From a virus: a DNA stretch of 21,914 nt. A program made the translations under genes and the position numbers. Shown one piece after another: positions 6,072 to 17,004 of this stretch. Positions within the stretch are counted from its first letter, which is position 1. The number at the start of each line of letters is the position of its first letter. Under the pieces are notes generated by a model that was not told the origin of the DNA, made no database searches, and saw nothing but the letters and a program-made list of their open reading frames with translations. Where the stretch lies: the IMG/VR virus record IMGVR_UViG_3300033153_005085, positions 1-21,914 of that record; one strand, given 5' to 3'.

Positions 6072-8057
6072 ATGATACAAAAAAAGATCCTTACATTGAT
6101 TTTTGTTTTCCTTTGTTTAGCGATGTTGACGATGCTTTTAGCATCTAACTCAGATGCGAGAGTGAGAGAAAGTTTTAGGCAACATTTCGAGCCTGATAGA
6201 AACTTACTAGCAAACCCCGGTTTTGAAAACTACTCGGCATCGTGGACTAAACACGCATCGGACACTTTCGCAGTTGAAAGCACTACGCCGTTAGACGGAA
6301 AACGACACATACTTTATACATCCTCATCAACTGGTAGATGCATGGCATCCGAGGTGATAACCGTACAGTTAGGTATGCGAGGGCATGACTGCGAGGGGTC
6401 GATAAAAGTTATTAACGATCTTAACTCTACCGGAGATTTAACTTTAGATGTCTACGATGGATCAAACCCTATTGTATCAGTACCAATTCAAAGCACGTCG
6501 GCATCTATTTCTCAATGGGTCCGTACTCCAGTTTTTAGCTGTCCGGGTTCAGGCACGATGCAGTTACGACTCTGCTCTGCTAATGGGTCTCTTAGTACTG
6601 TAAAAGCTGATAGTGCATGGTTAGGTGATACCCGCAGAGACATGCAGGTCTCGCAAGCTGAAGTTATCGGTACATTAAAATACGATGGTGCTACAAATTG
6701 TGTTTGGTTTACTACAAGTGGAACATGGGTTGATTTTGGTCAAGACACAGATTGTAACGTGGCGACTGTGACGGGCCGGGCGCAGGTTCCTGCGACTAAA
6801 CTGCCTAGAATTGTTTTTCCATCATTAGGGCCAGGCAAGTATACTGTAGTAGCTCAAGGACAAATGTTACCTCATTATTCTGGTTCTGCAACTACTTGCC
6901 GTTTTTCATTAGCCGCGGATACTGGTACACCATCGGTTAGAGCCGGAGCGATACAACTATATTCCAGTTCTGCAACAACAGAAGACCGCGCAGAACAGTT
7001 AGTTGGCACATGGATATATCCAAACGCTGTTGGTGAAACGTCGTTTTCGATACAGTCATATCGTGCAGCCGGAGGCGGCGAGTGCCAGATACCAATTACA
7101 GACTCAAATATCGACTTGACTTTTACTGTTACTAAATTTCCTCTAGAGTCGCAAACAGCATACGACTTAAACGAACAGGGCTTTTTTATCTCTGCTAAAA
7201 ATAGTGTCGGTGCTTTCAGTATTGGAACAGGTAATGATGGCAGTTGGCAGGAAATGGATAACAGCGGCATTTCGCTTGTTTTAAATCCTGGCTCTGGTCC
7301 GGCTATGCAGACATGCACAAGTACAGAGGTCGCATCTGGTCTAACTTGTAGCGGAAATGAAAACATAGGAATTTCATTTGATATTTCAAAACCAAGATCG
7401 ATAATTGCTTGCGTTGATCTAAGCCATCTTTTCTCAGCGGTTCAGGTTACACAGCAATTTAAAATAATTGAAACAGCTAACAACTCGCAAACACAGGTTG
7501 TCGATACTGAGGAGGCTTTGTTCGCTTGGAACGCTACAGGAACCCACACTATGACACCGGGCCATAGTTTTTGCCGCACCTTTAATTTTACGAGTGTGGG
7601 CCAAAAAACTTTGAGACTAGTTGAATACACAAGCGGAGTATCCTCATTAACGTTAAACAGATGTCCTGAAACTAATGCTGTAAACTGGGTTATCACTGAC
7701 GCTGTTGAGGGTCATCAGATTGTCATTAACAATACAGTTTCAAGTCCTGTATTGTCCGGTAGACAAATATGCTCATTCAAAATAAACAATAGCGCAGGAA
7801 CACCGGTTGAATTTTTAGACGATGGGTGCATCGCTAGTATCACCGATATCGGAGTCGGAGACTACGAATTATATTTTGAAACTAATTTTTGGCCCACAAA
7901 ACCGAGTTGCACTGTCACGATGCAGAGCACGGTGCACGATGGATCATGCCATATAGAGGACACAGTCAGCGACTCAAAGATGGATGTGGTCTGCCATACT
8001 CTATCAGCTACGCCTTCAGATAGAGCGTTTTATGGAATTTGTATAGGACCGCGATGA
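6072..8057 (+). CDS. Large Cys-rich protein with N-terminal signal peptide, function unknown
   Basis: A 661-residue protein that starts with a classical export signal: KK, a hydrophobic core at about 6-24, and a likely cleavage after SDA near residue 29. The mature part begins with a carbohydrate-binding-like jelly-roll pattern (LLANPGFENYSASWTKH). It continues with several beta-rich domains carrying about 19 cysteines, spaced so that most domains hold a pair, as in disulfide-bonded extracellular proteins. A cleaved signal peptide is odd for a virion protein, because tails assemble in the cytoplasm. It may be a fibre with a hydrophobic anchor, or a true exported phage protein. The ATG is preceded by AGAGGT. 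Confidence 0.6.
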   Translation: MIQKKILTLIFVFLCLAMLTMLLASNSDARVRESFRQHFEPDRNLLANPGFENYSASWTKHASDTFAVESTTPLDGKRHILYTSSSTGRCMASEVITVQLGMRGHDCEGSIKVINDLNSTGDLTLDVYDGSNPIVSVPIQSTSASISQWVRTPVFSCPGSGTMQLRLCSANGSLSTVKADSAWLGDTRRDMQVSQAEVIGTLKYDGATNCVWFTTSGTWVDFGQDTDCNVATVTGRAQVPATKLPRIVFPSLGPGKYTVVAQGQMLPHYSGSATTCRFSLAADTGTPSVRAGAIQLYSSSATTEDRAEQLVGTWIYPNAVGETSFSIQSYRAAGGGECQIPITDSNIDLTFTVTKFPLESQTAYDLNEQGFFISAKNSVGAFSIGTGNDGSWQEMDNSGISLVLNPGSGPAMQTCTSTEVASGLTCSGNENIGISFDISKPRSIIACVDLSHLFSAVQVTQQFKIIETANNSQTQVVDTEEALFAWNATGTHTMTPGHSFCRTFNFTSVGQKTLRLVEYTSGVSSLTLNRCPETNAVNWVITDAVEGHQIVINNTVSSPVLSGRQICSFKINNSAGTPVEFLDDGCIASITDIGVGDYELYFETNFWPTKPSCTVTMQSTVHDGSCHIEDTVSDSKMDVVCHTLSATPSDRAFYGICIGPR

Positions 8058-9124
8058 CAGCTCTAAAACTCCTCATCTATTGGATAACATTTCCGTTAAA
8101 ACTACCGATCCTTACACTCCTACAAATCTACGGAGAGTTTTCAAACCCACAGATTTACAACATAAAAGAGATACCAAAACGAAAGGGATTTGAAAAACCA
8201 GATACTCCCTCTATCATAAATCATCAGTGGCCTGAGGCGGGTTATCCTGATCACTCAGCATCTAGGACTGGAGAGTGTGTAGATGTCGGACTCATTCAAA
8301 AAGGTGAGTTGAGAGTGTTTGTAAAAAACACTGGAGAGATAACTAGAGGACCTCACGGAGTTGAAAACGGACCTCCTGTAAGTGGCGACATGGTATGTGG
8401 TTTTTTGTTAGGTTACACGTCGCCGTGGTCTAAAGATCCTAAACCTGCTCAGTATTTAGAGTGGTTAGCTGATTGGATGATAGAAAATAACGAGGGTCCG
8501 ACCGAGCGCATGGACTGCGGATATCGCCGTAACCCGCTCCTGGTAGGGGCGCAGAGCCTTTTACCTTTAGCACTTTATAAAACTGCCTATAACGAAACTG
8601 GAGAGGAGCGTTTTTTAAAAGCGTACCGTAGACTTTTGTGGATGGGTTACGGAGTGCTCGCTTTAGTACCTACGGCGTACATGCATAAATATCCTGAGTG
8701 GGTTAAAAAACTTCTTAAATTTTTGAAATTCAAAAACCCTGTGCATAATATCCGATCACTTTATAACGATGCGAACTGCATGAGGTGCCTCGCTGTTTTG
8801 ATACGACAGTCAAAGGGTATGTCTCAATTTTACTGGAGACTATGCGCTTTAGTAGTTTGGTTTGGATCTCGTCGATGGCATTTACCTTTTATGGACTTTT
8901 ATGGTTTAGGTAAGGTCAGAGAAAGCACAAAGGACTATGTCTCCTGGATGCTAGAGGGTGAGAAACGATATGATAAAACTATGGCGATCGCTCCTGTTCG
9001 TTACCCTAAATGGGGCGAGTCATGGGACGACGAGAGATATGATAACTCTATAGTTTACAACGTGAAAACAATCGGTATTTATTTCGATTGGTTTTATGCG
9101 ACTAGAGGTGACACAGATGCCTGA
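8054..9124 (+). CDS. Unknown membrane-anchored protein, possible alpha-helical toroid domain
   Basis: A 356-residue protein with a hydrophobic N-terminus (about 3-28, LKLLIYWITFPLKLP) that could be an uncleaved anchor. The rest is rich in Trp, Tyr and Arg, with repeated helix pairs (QYLEWLADWMIENN, FLKAYRRLLWMGYG, FYWRLCALVVWFGSRRW) and acidic-aromatic loops (SGDMVCGFLLG, WGESWDDERYDNS). Helix pairs with such loops occur in alpha/alpha-toroid glycan-active enzymes, but I see no catalytic signature and do not assign one. ATG 8054 is chosen over the TTG at 8039 because it overlaps the upstream stop as ATGA and has AGGA 5 nt upstream. Its coupling to the preceding Cys-rich exported protein suggests a joint role. 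Confidence 0.6.
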   Translation: MTALKLLIYWITFPLKLPILTLLQIYGEFSNPQIYNIKEIPKRKGFEKPDTPSIINHQWPEAGYPDHSASRTGECVDVGLIQKGELRVFVKNTGEITRGPHGVENGPPVSGDMVCGFLLGYTSPWSKDPKPAQYLEWLADWMIENNEGPTERMDCGYRRNPLLVGAQSLLPLALYKTAYNETGEERFLKAYRRLLWMGYGVLALVPTAYMHKYPEWVKKLLKFLKFKNPVHNIRSLYNDANCMRCLAVLIRQSKGMSQFYWRLCALVVWFGSRRWHLPFMDFYGLGKVRESTKDYVSWMLEGEKRYDKTMAIAPVRYPKWGESWDDERYDNSIVYNVKTIGIYFDWFYATRGDTDA

Positions 9125-9545
9125 GTGGAGAGAGTTAATGATAATAGTCGGCGGGGTTTTTTTCGCTATCTATATCGTTTACATCCTCACATCAAAACTC
9201 ATCGATAGGTACTTTAAAAAGGTCGATACCCTTGAGGCGGTTAAAGACTTAGTTATTGAAACTCAACTAAAAAGCCTCGGTAAAATAGTCGAGACACATA
9301 CGGAAAATATGGATGACATAAAGGACGCGATACATGAGTCCGAGAAACAAATCATTGAGGCTCGAAACGACATCAAGGAAAACTCCCAGAGTTTTATCAG
9401 ACTACACACCGCTTTGAAAGAGTTTGTCAGAGAAACTAGCACACGGTTACAACGGATTGAAACCGGTAAAATAGTCCAGGTCGGTAAAGATACCTGGATG
9501 TTTAAAAATACGCAGGGAGGCGGAGGAGATGGCGACGCTGCATGA
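9117..9545 (+). CDS. Membrane-anchored coiled-coil protein, possible inner spanin
   Basis: A 142-residue protein with one N-terminal transmembrane segment (about 8-25, IIVGGVFFAIYIVYIL). A long charged helical region (30-125) with heptad-like spacing follows, then a short Gly-rich tail. An N-terminal anchor with a periplasmic coiled coil is the topology of inner-membrane spanins (Rz type), and the gene directly precedes the endolysin. Other phage membrane proteins of this shape exist, so the role is tentative. ATG 9117 is preferred over 9096 because AGAGGTG lies 6 nt upstream of it and it overlaps the previous stop by 8 nt. It overlaps the endolysin start by 17 nt. Confidence 0.5.
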   Translation: MPEWRELMIIVGGVFFAIYIVYILTSKLIDRYFKKVDTLEAVKDLVIETQLKSLGKIVETHTENMDDIKDAIHESEKQIIEARNDIKENSQSFIRLHTALKEFVRETSTRLQRIETGKIVQVGKDTWMFKNTQGGGGDGDAA

Positions 9546-10014
9546 GTGGAGTTTACTAAGATATTTTAGACCTAAAGGCACTTTCGACAAATGGCATAAC
9601 TCAGCTATAATGGATTTTCGTTTGCTAAAGATCCTCGACGACTTCAGACATCACATCAACTCTCCGATAATAGTTACATCAGGTGCGGGAGGTACGCATA
9701 AAAGTACGCAGTCATATCATTATCAAGGTAAGGCTGTCGACATAATAGTAAAAGGTTATAGCAGCACTCTGCTCGATCTTTTACTAGAGGCGTTGAGTTT
9801 TCCGTTTAGCGGAGTGGGGTTGTATCCGCTATGGAAGTATCGAGGGTCTGTCAAGGGAGGTCTGCATTTAGACATCAGGCCTGAGAATGATACCCGGCGC
9901 ACAGCGAAATGGCTAGGCATAACCCGGTCTAACTACGTTGACGGAAAGTTGATGACCAGTACTGATTACATGGGTCTGACATATGAAAATATTAAAAAAC
10001 ATGTCAGACTTTAA
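9529..10014 (+). CDS. Endolysin-like peptidase, M15 family (LD/DD-carboxypeptidase fold)
   Basis: A 161-residue protein with the M15_3-type zinc peptidase pattern. His64 and Asp71 lie in SYHYQGKAVDI, and His113 (with Asp115) in GGLHLDIRP; together these form the expected H-x6-D plus H-x-D zinc site. Such enzymes cut peptide bonds in peptidoglycan stem peptides. Length matches single-domain M15 endolysins, with no added cell-wall binding domain, which is common for phages of Gram-negative hosts. No signal peptide is seen, so it would need the adjacent holin-like protein to reach the wall. A very strong GGAGGCGGAGGAG site precedes the ATG. A tail-borne peptidase is the alternative, but the neighbours favour host lysis. 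Confidence 0.85.
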   Translation: MATLHEWSLLRYFRPKGTFDKWHNSAIMDFRLLKILDDFRHHINSPIIVTSGAGGTHKSTQSYHYQGKAVDIIVKGYSSTLLDLLLEALSFPFSGVGLYPLWKYRGSVKGGLHLDIRPENDTRRTAKWLGITRSNYVDGKLMTSTDYMGLTYENIKKHVRL

Positions 10015-10265: not shown

Positions 10266-10533
10266 GGCTAAAAACCTCATTGAGTTTTTCTTTCGGTTCG
10301 CACTATTTATAAAAGATCGTGTGCCTCGACCGTTTCGCCTTATCTATAACGAGGTTATGTGCTATCTGAGGCGCGAAAGAGTGCGGTATTTAGTTAAAAA
10401 GATCAAAAAAAACAGGGTTAAACGTGCTAAAAACATCGATAAAAAGTACCATAATCACACTTATTATGACTATCTCGATCACGCCATACGCGAGGGTAGG
10501 AAAAATAAGCGTGGAGGATCAGAAAAACCTTGA
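10249..10533 (+). CDS. Small basic protein of the lysis cassette, function unknown
   Basis: A 94-residue, strongly basic protein (about a third Lys/Arg) with an N-terminal hydrophobic/aromatic stretch (LIEFFFRFALFIKD) and a long positively charged helix (about 40-65). It starts with GTG at 10249, inside the end of the holin-like gene, with only a weak purine-rich site (AGAAAGA) before it, so the exact start is uncertain. Its second half overlaps the next gene in another frame by 110 nt. It could be an amphipathic membrane-surface protein. I do not recognise a family. Confidence 0.5.
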   Translation: METQNKAKNLIEFFFRFALFIKDRVPRPFRLIYNEVMCYLRRERVRYLVKKIKKNRVKRAKNIDKKYHNHTYYDYLDHAIREGRKNKRGGSEKP

Positions 10534-10726
10534 AACATTTGTCAAAAACTGTGAGGGCTGTCAGTATGAATTGACGGAGACTCGCGATGCATTGGCTGAA
10601 TGTGTGTCTACTACTGATTTTACTACTCGCTGGTATCAAGATCCTATTATCATAGCTGGTATTTCGTTTGTCAGTTTCGGTTTAGGTGCGGTATTATCTC
10701 ATTTAGTATATGGAGATGACAGATGA
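10424..10726 (+). CDS. Exported protein with signal sequence, Cys motif and C-terminal membrane span; spanin-like
   Basis: A 100-residue protein nested out of frame in the preceding gene. Residues 1-23 form a plausible signal sequence ending in PYA. A periplasmic segment with Cys43, Cys46 and Cys60 in a helical region (CEGCQYELTETRDALAEC) follows, then a C-terminal transmembrane segment (about 74-95). The start is GTG at 10424, with AGGG 7 nt upstream. A later GTG (10511) would remove the signal sequence. Nested starts and this topology recall spanin genes, and the position at the end of the lysis cassette agrees. No lipobox is present, so it is not a standard outer-membrane spanin. Its stop overlaps the next start as ATGA. 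Confidence 0.5.
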   Translation: MLKTSIKSTIITLIMTISITPYARVGKISVEDQKNLETFVKNCEGCQYELTETRDALAECVSTTDFTTRWYQDPIIIAGISFVSFGLGAVLSHLVYGDDR

Positions 10727-13923: not shown

Positions 13924-14053
13924 AGTGATATGATACGCGACATGCGCCTAGAAAGTAACCAAAACATAGCGAAAAAACTATCAAATATGCTATAAAAACC
14001 CCGCTTTTTTACCGATATATAGGGTAGTTTCGTAGGCATTTCACATTAAAAAC

Positions 14054-14127
14054 CGCTGAGAGGGTTTTGATGTTTATTAATTTCATTTCTTTGTTGGTTC
14101 CGATCACCTTGTCCGACCCTCTCAGCG
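14054..14127 (+). repeat. 11-bp perfect inverted repeat with 52-nt interior (structured RNA or terminator candidate)
   Basis: CGCTGAGAGGG (14054-14064) is the exact reverse complement of CCCTCTCAGCG (14117-14127). The interior has an AT-rich first half and then two TCCGA copies 13 nt apart. TCC and TTTT follow the stem. It could fold into a closing stem of a small RNA, act as a long-loop terminator, or be a protein site. Confidence 0.5.
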
Positions 14128-14137
14128 TCCTTTTATA

Positions 14138-14167
14138 TTGACTAACTTTTTACCATCTGTGTTTATT
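14138..14167 (+). promoter_or_regulatory. Candidate sigma70-type promoter for the nuclease gene
   Basis: TTGACT (14138-14143) matches 5 of 6 bases of the -35 consensus. TTTATT (14162-14167), 18 nt on, matches 4 of 6 of the -10. Transcription would start at about 14174, the ATG of the nuclease gene, which has no Shine-Dalgarno site. This would make a nearly leaderless message. The -10 match is modest. Confidence 0.35.
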
Positions 14168-14173
14168 AGTCCT

Positions 14174-14680
14174 ATGGATCACAAAGCATCTACAAAAAAA
14201 GCACTCGAAAAATATTACCTAAAACAAATGCCTAAGAAAAAACGTAAACCGAACCAAAAACCAGAACGAGACCTACAAAAAGCAGTGCTAGTATGGTTAC
14301 GACTAAATAAATTCGACTGTCATCACGTAGAGTCGAAAGCCGTTTATAACCAGAAAGCAGGTCGCTACATGACCGGTCAAACTGTTTCAGGGATGAGTGA
14401 TATAGTTGGATGCTCTGGAGATGGTGTCTCTGTGTGGGTAGAACTGAAGTCAAAGGGTCGCCGAAAAACCCTGCGTCCTGGTCAACATGAGTTTTTACTG
14501 AGAAAGATAGGCTGTCATTGTTTCGCTGTTTGCGTTGACTCGGTCGAGATGTTAGCGACTGTCTGGGATGAGTATCAAAATATTGAAAGTCGTCAGGATC
14601 GAGTGCGCTTTCTGAAAAACCACCTGCCAATACCTTATAAGAAAGGTGAGGATGAGTTTGACGATGAGTTTGGGTTTTAG
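14174..14680 (+). CDS. VRR-NUC domain nuclease (PD-(D/E)XK superfamily)
   Basis: A 168-residue protein with the VRR-NUC pattern: Glu31 in the N-terminal helix (PERDLQKAVLVWLR), Asp76 in GMSDIVG, Glu90 and Lys92 in VWVELKSK, and Gln104 in LRPGQHEFL. The remainder (HCFAVCVDSVEML) is the last strand/helix of the fold. Phage members are stand-alone nucleases thought to act on branched or structured DNA during recombination or packaging. A Lys-rich N-terminal segment may aid DNA binding. ATG 14174 is preferred over the TTG at 14138, which fits a -35 hexamer. Later ATG 14228 also retains the domain. It converges with the leftward early operon, overlapping by 4 nt. Confidence 0.8.
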   Translation: MDHKASTKKALEKYYLKQMPKKKRKPNQKPERDLQKAVLVWLRLNKFDCHHVESKAVYNQKAGRYMTGQTVSGMSDIVGCSGDGVSVWVELKSKGRRKTLRPGQHEFLLRKIGCHCFAVCVDSVEMLATVWDEYQNIESRQDRVRFLKNHLPIPYKKGEDEFDDEFGF

Positions 14681-14862: not shown

Positions 14863-15012
14863 TTATCCTCCCTCATCGATCCGTTTCGCCATACAAAAAC
14901 AAGTGCCTCCGATGATAACCGAGTCAAGCGGGTAACATCTCTGTTTACACTTATCTAAAAACGTGCAGCCAGAGAGAGTTAAAAGTAAAGCTAACGCCAA
15001 CATCCCTTTCAT
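14863..15012 (-). CDS. Small Cys-rich lipoprotein, superinfection-exclusion candidate
   Basis: A 49-residue protein with a short lipoprotein signal peptide: MKG, a hydrophobic core (MLALALLLT) and the lipobox L13-S14-G15-C16. The mature product would be 34 residues starting at Cys16, with four more cysteines (22, 26, 38, 40) that could form two disulfides. Thr at +2 does not favour inner-membrane retention, so outer-membrane sorting is likely in an E. coli-like host. The ATG overlaps the upstream stop as ATGA, and GAGGGG lies 6-7 nt upstream. Early phage lipoproteins such as T5 Llp and lambdoid Cor block receptors against superinfection; that role is an inference here. An outer spanin is less likely because the lysis genes are far away. 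Confidence 0.75.
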   Translation of the reverse strand: MKGMLALALLLTLSGCTFLDKCKQRCYPLDSVIIGGTCFCMAKRIDEGG

Positions 15013-15320
15013 ACTTCTAACCCCTCTAACTGAACGCCTAGTAAACTAGCCTCTATCAAAACTCTGCTTTTATCGTTATGCGTGAGGGCATCCCTGTCCT
15101 CATCGGTTAACCCCTCCCACATTTCTAATAACCTGACCTGTTCTGTCGTTCTGCGCTTTTTACCCTCAGCCATGAGTTGCGGGAAAATGTTATTTTTAAA
15201 ATGCTCATGCTCTAGCTGTTCAAACTCTGTGCGCTCCGGTCTGCCTGACTGGAGTTTATCGTTTATCTCTTTAAACTCTTTTTGGATCGGGTTGTCGAGG
15301 TCGTACATCTGCATACTCAT
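15009..15320 (-). CDS. Hypothetical early protein, charged and helical
   Basis: A 103-residue protein rich in Glu, Lys and Arg with several helices (QKEFKEINDKLQSG, EQLEHEHFKNNIFPQLM, TTEQVRLLEMWEGLTDEDRDAL). No Cys, no membrane segment and no known motif. The start is supported by GGAGGG 7 nt upstream and an ATGA overlap with the preceding basic gene. Its stop overlaps the lipoprotein start in the same way. The Trp-Glu-Gly-Leu segment and acidic helices could mediate binding to another protein. Function not recognised. Confidence 0.75.
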   Translation of the reverse strand: MSMQMYDLDNPIQKEFKEINDKLQSGRPERTEFEQLEHEHFKNNIFPQLMAEGKKRRTTEQVRLLEMWEGLTDEDRDALTHNDKSRVLIEASLLGVQLEGLEV

Positions 15321-15439
15321 CTACTAGCCCTCCGAGCCTTTCGCTGCGCCTTTCGTTTCACTCTGCATTTAGCTTTGTGGTCTTTTGTTTTTGGATGTGA
15401 TTTTTTACGATCCCTAATTTTCTTACGCTTTTTTGGCAT
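15317..15439 (-). CDS. Very basic 40-residue protein, possible nucleic-acid binder
   Basis: A 40-residue product in which more than half the residues are Lys or Arg (starting MPKKRKKIRDRKK), with one Cys at position 25 and no hydrophobic core. It fills the gap between the SSB gene side and the next gene with coupled junctions at both ends: TAATG with the micropeptide upstream and ATGA with the downstream gene. GGAG lies about 9-10 nt before the ATG. Such composition suggests binding to DNA, RNA or ribosomes, possibly an early host-takeover protein, but this is inferred from composition only. Confidence 0.6.
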   Translation of the reverse strand: MPKKRKKIRDRKKSHPKTKDHKAKCRVKRKAQRKARRASR

Positions 15440-15504: not shown

Positions 15505-16026
15505 CTAAAACGGTAGGTCCTCGTCAGTATCGAAACTCGGAGTCATGTCAGGTATGTCCTCCTCGCTTACTACATCGTTTAGATAATTGTTAACATAAAG
15601 ATTGTGATCGTTAACAGTCCTGCCGCTTTTGTTAACCCATGGGTTCGGCTGTATAAAACACTCCGCAACCCTACCTAAAGTCGACCGCAACATCTGCTCG
15701 ATTTGTTCGGGGTCGTTTATGGTTTTTCTGTCGTGCTTTAGTTTCGACATCATCATTTTGAAAAACTTTCGCGAGTCAGTCCTGTCAAGTCTGGAGTTAC
15801 ACCATACCTTACGGTTTTTGTGTTTACCGTCTACGATAGTCCACTCAACAGTCGCCTTTAACTCATCAGGTAACCATGTCACGTTACTAACTGTAGCGGT
15901 GTAAACTCCCTCCTCCATAGGACCAAACTCTTTCTCTGTAGTTTCTTTCTCGAAAACATCGGGGTCATCAGATGCGTAGGTTGTCATCCATTGTTTGTTG
16001 CCTTGAGTCTGGTTTTGGTTTGTCAT
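15505..16026 (-). CDS. Single-stranded DNA-binding protein, DUF669-like
   Basis: A 173-residue protein with an OB-fold-like middle (about 35-150: GVYTATVSNVTWL, ATVEWTIVDGKHKNRKVWCNSRL, LGRVAECFIQPNPW). An acidic C-terminal tail ends in DEDLPF, closely resembling the bacterial SSB tip DDDIPF, through which SSB recruits partner proteins. The DUF669 family comprises phage SSB-like proteins often encoded beside Sak4-type annealing ATPases, as here. CAGGAG lies 8 nt before the ATG. The first 59 nt overlap the end of the ATPase gene in another frame. It should bind ssDNA during replication and recombination and dock the ATPase or helicase through its tip. Confidence 0.8.
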   Translation of the reverse strand: MTNQNQTQGNKQWMTTYASDDPDVFEKETTEKEFGPMEEGVYTATVSNVTWLPDELKATVEWTIVDGKHKNRKVWCNSRLDRTDSRKFFKMMMSKLKHDRKTINDPEQIEQMLRSTLGRVAECFIQPNPWVNKSGRTVNDHNLYVNNYLNDVVSEEDIPDMTPSFDTDEDLPF

Positions 16027-16780
16027 TTTTAGTCTCCTGTTTTGTTTTTGGTTTTATTATTTTTGGCTCTGTTTGTTTTTTAGTTTTTGTTATCTGTCCG
16101 TTGAGTGTCTTAACTAGGTTATTATAATCGAGCGGCATCTCTTTAGGCAATATCCCCGACCGATCACCTGCGTTTAGGTTTTCGTTACCCTTTGTGCGCA
16201 TTATCCTCGCACCTGTCGTGTCTTGAAAGCAGTAAAAAATCATGTCGCACATCCCGTGGATCGCCTTTCTAGCAGTCGATCCGAGGGTAGTGTCAGTGTA
16301 GGCTAGAGTCCTTTCGGTGACTCCCTCTTTTACAGTCCTATCTTTTGTGTCAGTGTGCGAGACTAAAACCAAACCGTAACCGTTTTGAGTTAGCCCTCTA
16401 ACAACTCTCATAAACTCGTTACGGGTCTTATGGTATGCCTTACCGTAGTCAGCCTCAGAGACATGAGTTATACCTAATGACTTACACACGTACTCCTCGC
16501 ACATCTGCCACGCATTATCAATGATATCGATAATCACAGTGTCAAACTCTCTGGGCTTTTGGAGGATGAGGTTTTTCACTATCACCTGCACATGTTCCCA
16601 GCGTGTCGGGGTTACCTGATAAACTTCTAAAAACTTTAGACCCGGTTCTGTCGCGATAAATAACGCTTTCGGAAAGTTAGAACAGAAAGTTGATTTACCT
16701 GCTTTAGGTGCTCCGTAAATCAGATAGGTGTAAAGTCCTACGTTAGTCTCTTTTTTAGTCCGTGTTTTTGGTAAGTCCAT
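15968..16780 (-). CDS. Sak4-like RecA-fold ATPase (single-strand annealing recombinase)
   Basis: A 270-residue protein with a RecA/AAA_24-type core: Walker A GAPKAGKST at about residues 23-31, Walker B EFDTVIIDIID at about 78-88, and a sensor-like GYGLVLVSHTD strand. The C-terminal 50 residues are Lys/Gln-rich and disordered (TKKQTEPKIIKPKTK). Phage Sak4 proteins promote annealing of homologous single strands with the cognate SSB, which is the next gene. ATG 16780 is preferred because AAGGA lies 5 nt upstream. ATG 16786, two codons earlier, overlaps the preceding stop as ATGA but leaves no spacing for that site. The tail overlaps the SSB gene by 59 nt. Confidence 0.8.
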   Translation of the reverse strand: MDLPKTRTKKETNVGLYTYLIYGAPKAGKSTFCSNFPKALFIATEPGLKFLEVYQVTPTRWEHVQVIVKNLILQKPREFDTVIIDIIDNAWQMCEEYVCKSLGITHVSEADYGKAYHKTRNEFMRVVRGLTQNGYGLVLVSHTDTKDRTVKEGVTERTLAYTDTTLGSTARKAIHGMCDMIFYCFQDTTGARIMRTKGNENLNAGDRSGILPKEMPLDYNNLVKTLNGQITKTKKQTEPKIIKPKTKQETKNDKPKPDSRQQTMDDNLRI

Positions 16781-16782
16781 AG

Positions 16783-17004
16783 TCATCCTTTTTTACATAT
16801 TTTTTCTAATTTGTTTAAAAACCTGCTAAATTCTTTTTCGGTAAGTGTAAAATATCCGCCGTGTTCATTTTCGTCTATTACTATAACATTTTCTTTTGTA
16901 CCGTATTTTTTTATCTTACTGATCCTTATATATTTGTAATCGACACCGTTACTTTTAGGCCTAACAACTATCGTTCTTTTATTAACATTTTTAGGAAACT
17001 CCAT
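16783..17004 (-). CDS. Small early protein, hypothetical (first gene of the leftward operon)
   Basis: A 73-residue basic protein with beta-strand patterns (RTIVVRP, YKYIRISKIKKYG, ENVIVIDE, GGYFTLTEKEF) and a C-terminal helix (FSRFLNKLEKICKKG). It looks like a small beta-sheet plus helix fold. It is AT-rich compared with most neighbours. AAAAGGAC lies 6-7 nt before the ATG, directly beside an operator palindrome, so it is the first product of the early operon. Possible roles include recombination accessory or regulator; no family recognised. Confidence 0.7.
   Translation of the reverse strand: MEFPKNVNKRTIVVRPKSNGVDYKYIRISKIKKYGTKENVIVIDENEHGGYFTLTEKEFSRFLNKLEKICKKG

What the first reader, a model, noticed from the sequence alone, without database searches (positions are those of the whole stretch)
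14863..15012. Unreported-looking early lipoprotein with five cysteines
A 49-residue coding sequence with a clear LSGC lipobox, coupled ATGA start and good ribosome site, encoded in the early recombination operon rather than near the lysis genes. The position and size resemble receptor-blocking lipoproteins of T5 and lambdoid phages.
Basis: partly seen in the sequence, partly recalled or inferred. Interest (0 to 1): 0.7.

Follow-up and report, generated by a model that had tools for sequence, protein, structure and literature searches.

The report
Tiny toxin-shaped lipoprotein in phage operon
A bacterial virus carries a gene, apparently expressed early, for a 34-residue lipid-anchored protein that is predicted to fold like a miniature scorpion-toxin or defensin domain; it probably sits in the host's outer membrane and may block re-infection, but its function is not shown.

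Summary
The minus-strand ORF 14863-15012 encodes MKGMLALALLLTLSG|CTFLDKCKQRCYPLDSVIIGGTCFCMAKRIDEGG. It has a lipobox, a ribosome site, ATGA coupling upstream and TAAATG downstream, and is the second-last gene of the Sak4/SSB operon. No shuffled window (0 of 1500) gave a comparable lipobox ORF with its cysteine pattern.

Membership in the Cor/Llp/Rtp45 receptor blockers is not supported. Those have about 57-62 mature residues and one non-lipid cysteine pair; this has 34 residues and four such cysteines. The only profile hit (E 0.085) covers just the signal peptide.

G-X-C-X-C. AlphaFold2 on the single mature sequence gives helix-hairpin (pLDDT 85). All 18 chains scoring Z>=2 in the second-look alignment are short scorpion toxins (CS-alpha-beta fold, about 1 A over 26 residues). 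No homologue was found in phages, plasmids, viral contigs or bacterial genomes.

Distant relatives also carry unrelated small lipoproteins in early operons. One of them, L382, has an early and a separate late one, which argues against a displaced o-spanin. Best reading: a disulfide-stapled outer-membrane lipoprotein binding an envelope protein, most likely for superinfection exclusion (confidence 0.4).

The parts
14863..15012 (-). 49-aa lipoprotein precursor; signal peptide 1-15, lipobox LSGC, mature 34 residues with CX3C (22,26) and GXCXC (38,40)
14866..14967 (-). mature domain: helix carrying CX3C, then a beta-hairpin whose second strand carries CXC (predicted minimal CS-alpha-beta fold)
   Evidence: AlphaFold2 pLDDT 85.2; Foldseek and VIA matches to short scorpion toxins
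15009..15320 (-). upstream 103-aa cytoplasmic-looking protein, coupled by ATGA; no family match
15317..15439 (-). 40-aa very basic ORF, coupled by ATGA to the 103-aa gene
   Evidence: weak coding score
14677..14862 (-). downstream 61-aa protein, last gene of the operon; no convincing family
15505..16026 (-). ssDNA-binding-like protein (phrog_378; DUF669-like just under the Pfam cut-off)
15968..16786 (-). Sak4-like recombination ATPase (phrog_124 E 9e-48; AAA_24)
16783..17004 (-). 73-aa protein, first gene of the operon
14138..14680 (+). convergent nuclease-like gene (phrog_93 endonuclease, phrog_5702 resolvase; VRR-NUC-like by eye)

Best explanation
14863-15012 is a genuine phage gene, apparently expressed early with the recombination genes (inferred from the operon). 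Its product is exported and lipidated at Cys16, and Thr at +2 should send it to the outer membrane if the host has an E. coli-like Lol system (inferred). In the periplasm C22/C26 of the helix pair with C38/C40 of the hairpin, giving a two-disulfide CS-alpha-beta-like domain of about 30 residues (framework shown; fold predicted; disulfides inferred). The most likely role is to bind the periplasmic side of a host outer-membrane protein, the phage's own receptor, so that sister phages no longer adsorb. This would work like Llp on FhuA or Rtp45 on LptD, but through an unrelated fold (inferred by analogy).
For: Gene and lipobox. Fold: the 34-residue mature sequence modelled without an alignment gives H3-11, E15-19, E22-26, mean pLDDT 85, 20 residues at 90 or more; the full-length model shows the same order. 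The Foldseek top PDB hit is GS-tamapin (prob 0.80), followed by other tamapin entries and CD4M47 mimics. In the VIA second look all 18 chains with Z>=2 are short scorpion toxins, best rmsd 0.9-1.1 A over 26 residues. Framework C[2]X3C[3]/C[5]X1C[6]: PMC5234102. Small phage lipoproteins do block receptors from the periplasmic face: Llp/FhuA (PMC9586334) and Rtp45/LptDE (PMC12685063). cor and rtp45 lie between the tail-tip gene and exo/erf/ssb. Unrelated small Cys-containing lipoproteins occur in early operons of relatives L191, L195, L169 and L382, as expected of a receptor-specific, quickly replaced gene.
Against: There is no homologue anywhere searched, so neither sequence conservation nor an alignment-based fold is available. 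The fold rests on a single sequence; Foldseek E-values are not significant (0.6 at best) and VIA Z is about 3, as expected for 30 residues. No host, receptor, expression or adsorption data exist. The protein is about half the length of known exclusion lipoproteins. The window shows no late lipoprotein, so an o-spanin role is not excluded.
Confidence: 0.4

Rival explanations
1. It is an early-expressed outer-membrane lipoprotein of another kind: a disulfide-stapled binder that inhibits a host envelope enzyme or machine, or blocks a later entry step (DNA uptake), rather than adsorption.
For: The fold and location evidence fits any envelope binder; CS-alpha-beta domains elsewhere are mostly binders or blockers (PMC5116183, PMC4303811 abstracts). 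The early slot in relatives holds different lipoproteins.
Against: No specific target can be named; receptor blockers are the only small phage lipoproteins with a solved mechanism found here.
Confidence: 0.3
2. It is the o-spanin of this phage, displaced into the recombination operon, working with a late inner-membrane partner such as 9096-9545.
For: It is the only lipoprotein in a window that holds the endolysin. 9096-9545 resembles an i-spanin (phrog_89, E 2e-4). Four-cysteine o-spanins exist, 35 of 526 (PMC6139136). In relatives the lysis enzyme can lie in the early operon (L169, L170).
Against: It is about 5 kb from the lysis genes, on the other strand, with no adjacent or overlapping i-spanin. 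18 of 73 relatives carry a different late lipoprotein directly upstream of the tail gene, and L382 has both a late and an early one, so the two classes are separate. The PHROG spanin hit covers only residues 1-28. No proline-rich region.
Confidence: 0.15
3. It is a member of the Cor/Llp/Rtp45 family proper, very diverged.
For: Similar genome position; weak profile hit.
Against: The hit is confined to the signal peptide; length and cysteine architecture differ; no match to PDB chains, which should include those of the Llp and Rtp45 entries.
Confidence: 0.04
4. The ORF is a chance reading frame or a decayed gene without function.
For: No homologue found; modest coding score.
Against: Tight coupling at both ends, ribosome site, lipobox, confident model from the sequence alone, and 0 of 1500 shuffles with the cysteine framework.
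Confidence: 0.05

Closest known systems
Phage T5 Llp and T1/phi80 Cor (FhuA-blocking lipoproteins)
   Same: Small phage lipoprotein with a typical lipobox, stabilised by disulfide; for Cor, placed between tail and recombination genes
   Different: About 59-62 mature residues, one cysteine pair far apart in sequence; no CX3C/CXC; no sequence similarity beyond the signal peptide
Phage Rtp Rtp45 (LptDE-blocking lipoprotein)
   Same: Small lipoprotein encoded beside the recombination genes; hairpin plus disulfide
   Different: 57 mature residues, single CX7C disulfide, long hairpin inserted in the LptD lumen (PMC12685063)
Two-component o-spanins (Rz1, PseT.2)
   Same: Small outer-membrane lipoprotein; some have four cysteines
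   Different: No partner gene adjacent, outside the lysis cassette, no proline-rich or known o-spanin domain
CS-alpha-beta mini-proteins (short alpha-KTx5-type scorpion toxins, defensins)
   Same: CX3C on a helix and CXC on the last strand; predicted structure within about 1 A over 26 residues
   Different: Lacks the third disulfide; N-terminal cysteine is lipidated; phage origin; no detectable sequence homology, so convergence is likely

Membership tests
Cor/Llp/Rtp45 exclusion lipoproteins | Signal peptide with lipobox | tested here: met
   LSGC at 13-16
Cor/Llp/Rtp45 exclusion lipoproteins | Sequence similarity over the mature domain | tested here: not met
   PHROG 1119 E 0.085 on residues 1-26 only; mature part alone gives no hit
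Cor/Llp/Rtp45 exclusion lipoproteins | About 60 mature residues with one cysteine pair | tested here: not met
   34 residues and four cysteines, against 57-62 and two in Llp, Cor (T1, phi80) and Rtp45
Cor/Llp/Rtp45 exclusion lipoproteins | Gene next to the tail-tip or receptor-binding gene | tested here: inconclusive
   Between the tail module and the recombination genes, with the nuclease gene and others in between
Cor/Llp/Rtp45 exclusion lipoproteins | Binds the receptor and stops adsorption | not testable with these tools
   Host and receptor unknown
o-spanin | Outer-membrane lipoprotein signal | tested here: met
   Lipobox, Thr at +2
o-spanin | Gene embedded in, overlapping or near an i-spanin gene in the lysis cassette | tested here: not met
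   Neighbours are a hydrophilic 103-aa and a 61-aa protein without N-terminal membrane anchor; lysis genes are at 9.1-10.7 kb on the other strand. T4-like phages show that separation occurs, so this lowers but does not kill the case
o-spanin | Match to an o-spanin profile over the mature domain | tested here: not met
   phrog_16495 E 0.21, residues 1-28 only
CS-alpha-beta fold | C[2]X3C[3] ... C[5]X1C[6] framework | tested here: met
   C22-X3-C26-X11-C38-X-C40 (definition in PMC5234102)
CS-alpha-beta fold | Helix followed by two-stranded sheet, CX3C on helix, CXC on last strand | tested here: met
   Predicted model only; nearest PDB chains are short scorpion toxins
CS-alpha-beta fold | Third disulfide C[1]-C[4] of defensins and most toxins | tested here: not met
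   No C[4]; C[1] position is the lipidated cysteine
CS-alpha-beta fold | Disulfides C2-C5 and C3-C6 formed | not testable with these tools
   Needs protein
Defensin/scorpion-toxin Pfam families | Sequence match | tested here: not met
   No Pfam or PDB-sequence hit for the mature part at E 10

The most novel reading that the evidence does not exclude
A phage encodes a membrane-tethered, toxin-shaped (CS-alpha-beta) mini-protein, evolved independently of eukaryotic toxins and defensins, that plugs or jams a host envelope protein from the periplasmic side early in infection.
Probability: 0.3. Interest if true: 0.75.

Novelty: new variant of a known kind. Interest (0 to 1): 0.5.

Why it matters
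If correct, one of the smallest disulfide folds known has been adopted by a phage as a lipid-anchored envelope effector. That would add a second structural solution to lipoprotein-mediated superinfection exclusion, and a roughly 30-residue, chemically synthesisable ligand for a bacterial outer-membrane protein. It also shows that early operons of this uncultivated siphophage group repeatedly carry short Cys-containing lipoproteins that sequence-based annotation cannot name.

Tried and rejected
Homologues of the lipoprotein: tblastn in phages and plasmids at E 10; peptide-pattern scans of viral and genome contigs; 43 relatives' whole records. All empty. PHROG Cor and spanin hits rejected as signal-peptide matches. 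The viral structure library gave only unconvincing matches. Alignment of the early lipoproteins: only L191 and L195 are homologous to each other (E 6e-11); the window protein matches none. Sak4 relatives in bacterial genomes, sought to identify the host: none. Papers on phage-encoded CS-alpha-beta or defensin-like lipoproteins: none found in the held library, which is incomplete.

Full report
Observation. On the minus strand, 14863-15012 encodes MKGMLALALLLTLSG|CTFLDKCKQRCYPLDSVIIGGTCFCMAKRIDEGG. All claimed features hold: LSGC lipobox, five cysteines, ATGA overlap with the upstream 103-aa gene, and GAGGGG eight bases before the start. The stop is followed at once by the ATG of a 61-aa gene. 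The operon runs 17004 to 14677: 73-aa protein, Sak4-like ATPase (phrog_124, E 9e-48), ssDNA-binding-like protein (phrog_378), 40-aa basic ORF, 103-aa protein, the lipoprotein, 61-aa protein. It converges on a nuclease-like gene at 14138-14680. The frame is the only positive one of six by codon score. In 1500 dinucleotide shuffles of the window, 12 lipobox + Shine-Dalgarno ORFs had four or more further cysteines and none had CX3C...CXC.

Not Cor/Llp. Llp, T1 Cor, phi80 Cor and Rtp45 were read from their genome records. They are 75-77-aa precursors with one cysteine pair besides the lipid cysteine, and in Llp and Cor that pair lies far apart. The window protein is half as long when mature and has two pairs with fixed spacing. 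The weak PHROG Cor hit covers residues 1-26 only. An unrelated 123-aa lipoprotein of relative L196 gives the same hit, and the mature sequence alone gives none. So the family filing fails, although 'works like' remains possible. The periplasmic jamming mechanism of Llp (PMC9586334) and the LptD-distorting mechanism of Rtp45 (PMC12685063) show what such a lipoprotein can do.

What the fold suggests. The spacing C-X3-C-X11-C-X-C, with Gly two residues before the first Cys of CXC, is the core of the cysteine-stabilised alpha-beta framework (C[2]X3C[3]/C[5]X1C[6]; PMC5234102). AlphaFold2 without any alignment gave helix-strand-strand for the full protein. For the mature 34 residues it gave mean pLDDT 85, with 20 residues at 90 or more: helix 3-11 carrying both CX3C cysteines, strands 15-19 and 22-26, the second carrying CXC. 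Foldseek against the PDB ranked the short scorpion toxin GS-tamapin first (probability 0.80), with further tamapin entries and the CD4M47 scorpion-toxin mimic in the list. In the second-look alignment all 18 chains with Z of 2 or more were short scorpion toxins; the best aligned 26 residues at 0.9-1.1 A (Z about 3, which is low in absolute terms because the domain is tiny). E-values are not significant, so this is shape plus cysteine framework, not homology. Pfam and PDB-sequence searches with the mature part were empty. Convergence is the likeliest origin.

Relatives. Patterns from Sak4, the nuclease and the 745-aa tail protein brought in distant relatives from IMG/VR: L169 and L170 (54% and 52% on Sak4), L184-L197 and L316-L388. 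None encodes a homologue of the lipoprotein. 18 of 73 loci have a different, 63-123-aa lipoprotein immediately or just upstream of the 745-aa tail gene. In some it overlaps an upstream membrane-protein gene, as expected of a two-component spanin pair. The window's gene in that slot, 10424-10726, is not a lipoprotein. Separately, small Cys-containing lipoproteins occur in replication or recombination operons: L191 14630-14893 and L195 10414-10653 (homologous to each other, E 6e-11), L169 3785-4033, and L382 14163-14381. The last lies beside a DUF2800 nuclease and an Enc34-type ssDNA-binding protein and is ATGA-coupled. L382 carries both an early and a late lipoprotein, so the two are separate classes. 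That weakens the o-spanin rival for the window gene but does not remove it: the window itself has no late lipoprotein, and four-cysteine o-spanins exist (PMC6139136).

Mechanism. Shown: gene, lipobox, cysteine framework, operon. Predicted: the fold. Inferred: export, lipidation, outer-membrane sorting, two disulfides, early expression, and binding to an envelope protein. Superinfection exclusion is the most likely single function (0.4). Another envelope-binding role is close behind (0.3) and an o-spanin is at 0.15.

Verdict. A real, orphan, early-operon phage lipoprotein with a predicted CS-alpha-beta fold.

Noticed in passing
window 14045-14136: A 13-bp-stem hairpin with a 48-nt loop lies between the tail module and the nuclease gene (RNA fold z -4.7, 0 of 200 shuffles as stable). 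It encloses the start of a 23-codon ORF (14070-14141) whose ribosome-site-like GAGAGGG lies in the stem; possibly a leader or regulatory element.
   Followed up: partly
window 10424-10726; L184 6116-6400, L189 6717-6971, L190 6042-6323: 18 of 73 relatives carry a lipoprotein just upstream of the 745-aa tail gene (several ending in GYxCxSPDD-like motifs), o-spanin-like by its overlap with a membrane-protein gene. In the window the slot is filled by a 100-aa protein that looks by eye like a signal peptide plus C-terminal membrane segment.
   Followed up: partly
L191 14630-14893 (-), L195 10414-10653 (+), L382 14163-14381 (-): Cys-rich small lipoproteins in early operons of relatives; the first two are homologous and match no family confidently.
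   Followed up: partly
L169 13564-13992, L170 5225-5617: In the two closest relatives the endolysin-like gene lies at the end of the recombination operon, whereas in the window the M15 endolysin is in the late tail operon (9529-10014).
   Followed up: no
window 6072-8057; L184 3512-5485: A long tail-module protein (661 and 657 aa) begins with what looks like a Sec signal peptide followed by NLLxNxGxE, unusual for a virion protein; no Pfam, PHROG or NCBIfam match in the window copy.
   Followed up: no
window 9096-9545: Inner-membrane coiled-coil protein next to the endolysin, weakly like i-spanins (phrog_89, E 2e-4).
   Followed up: no
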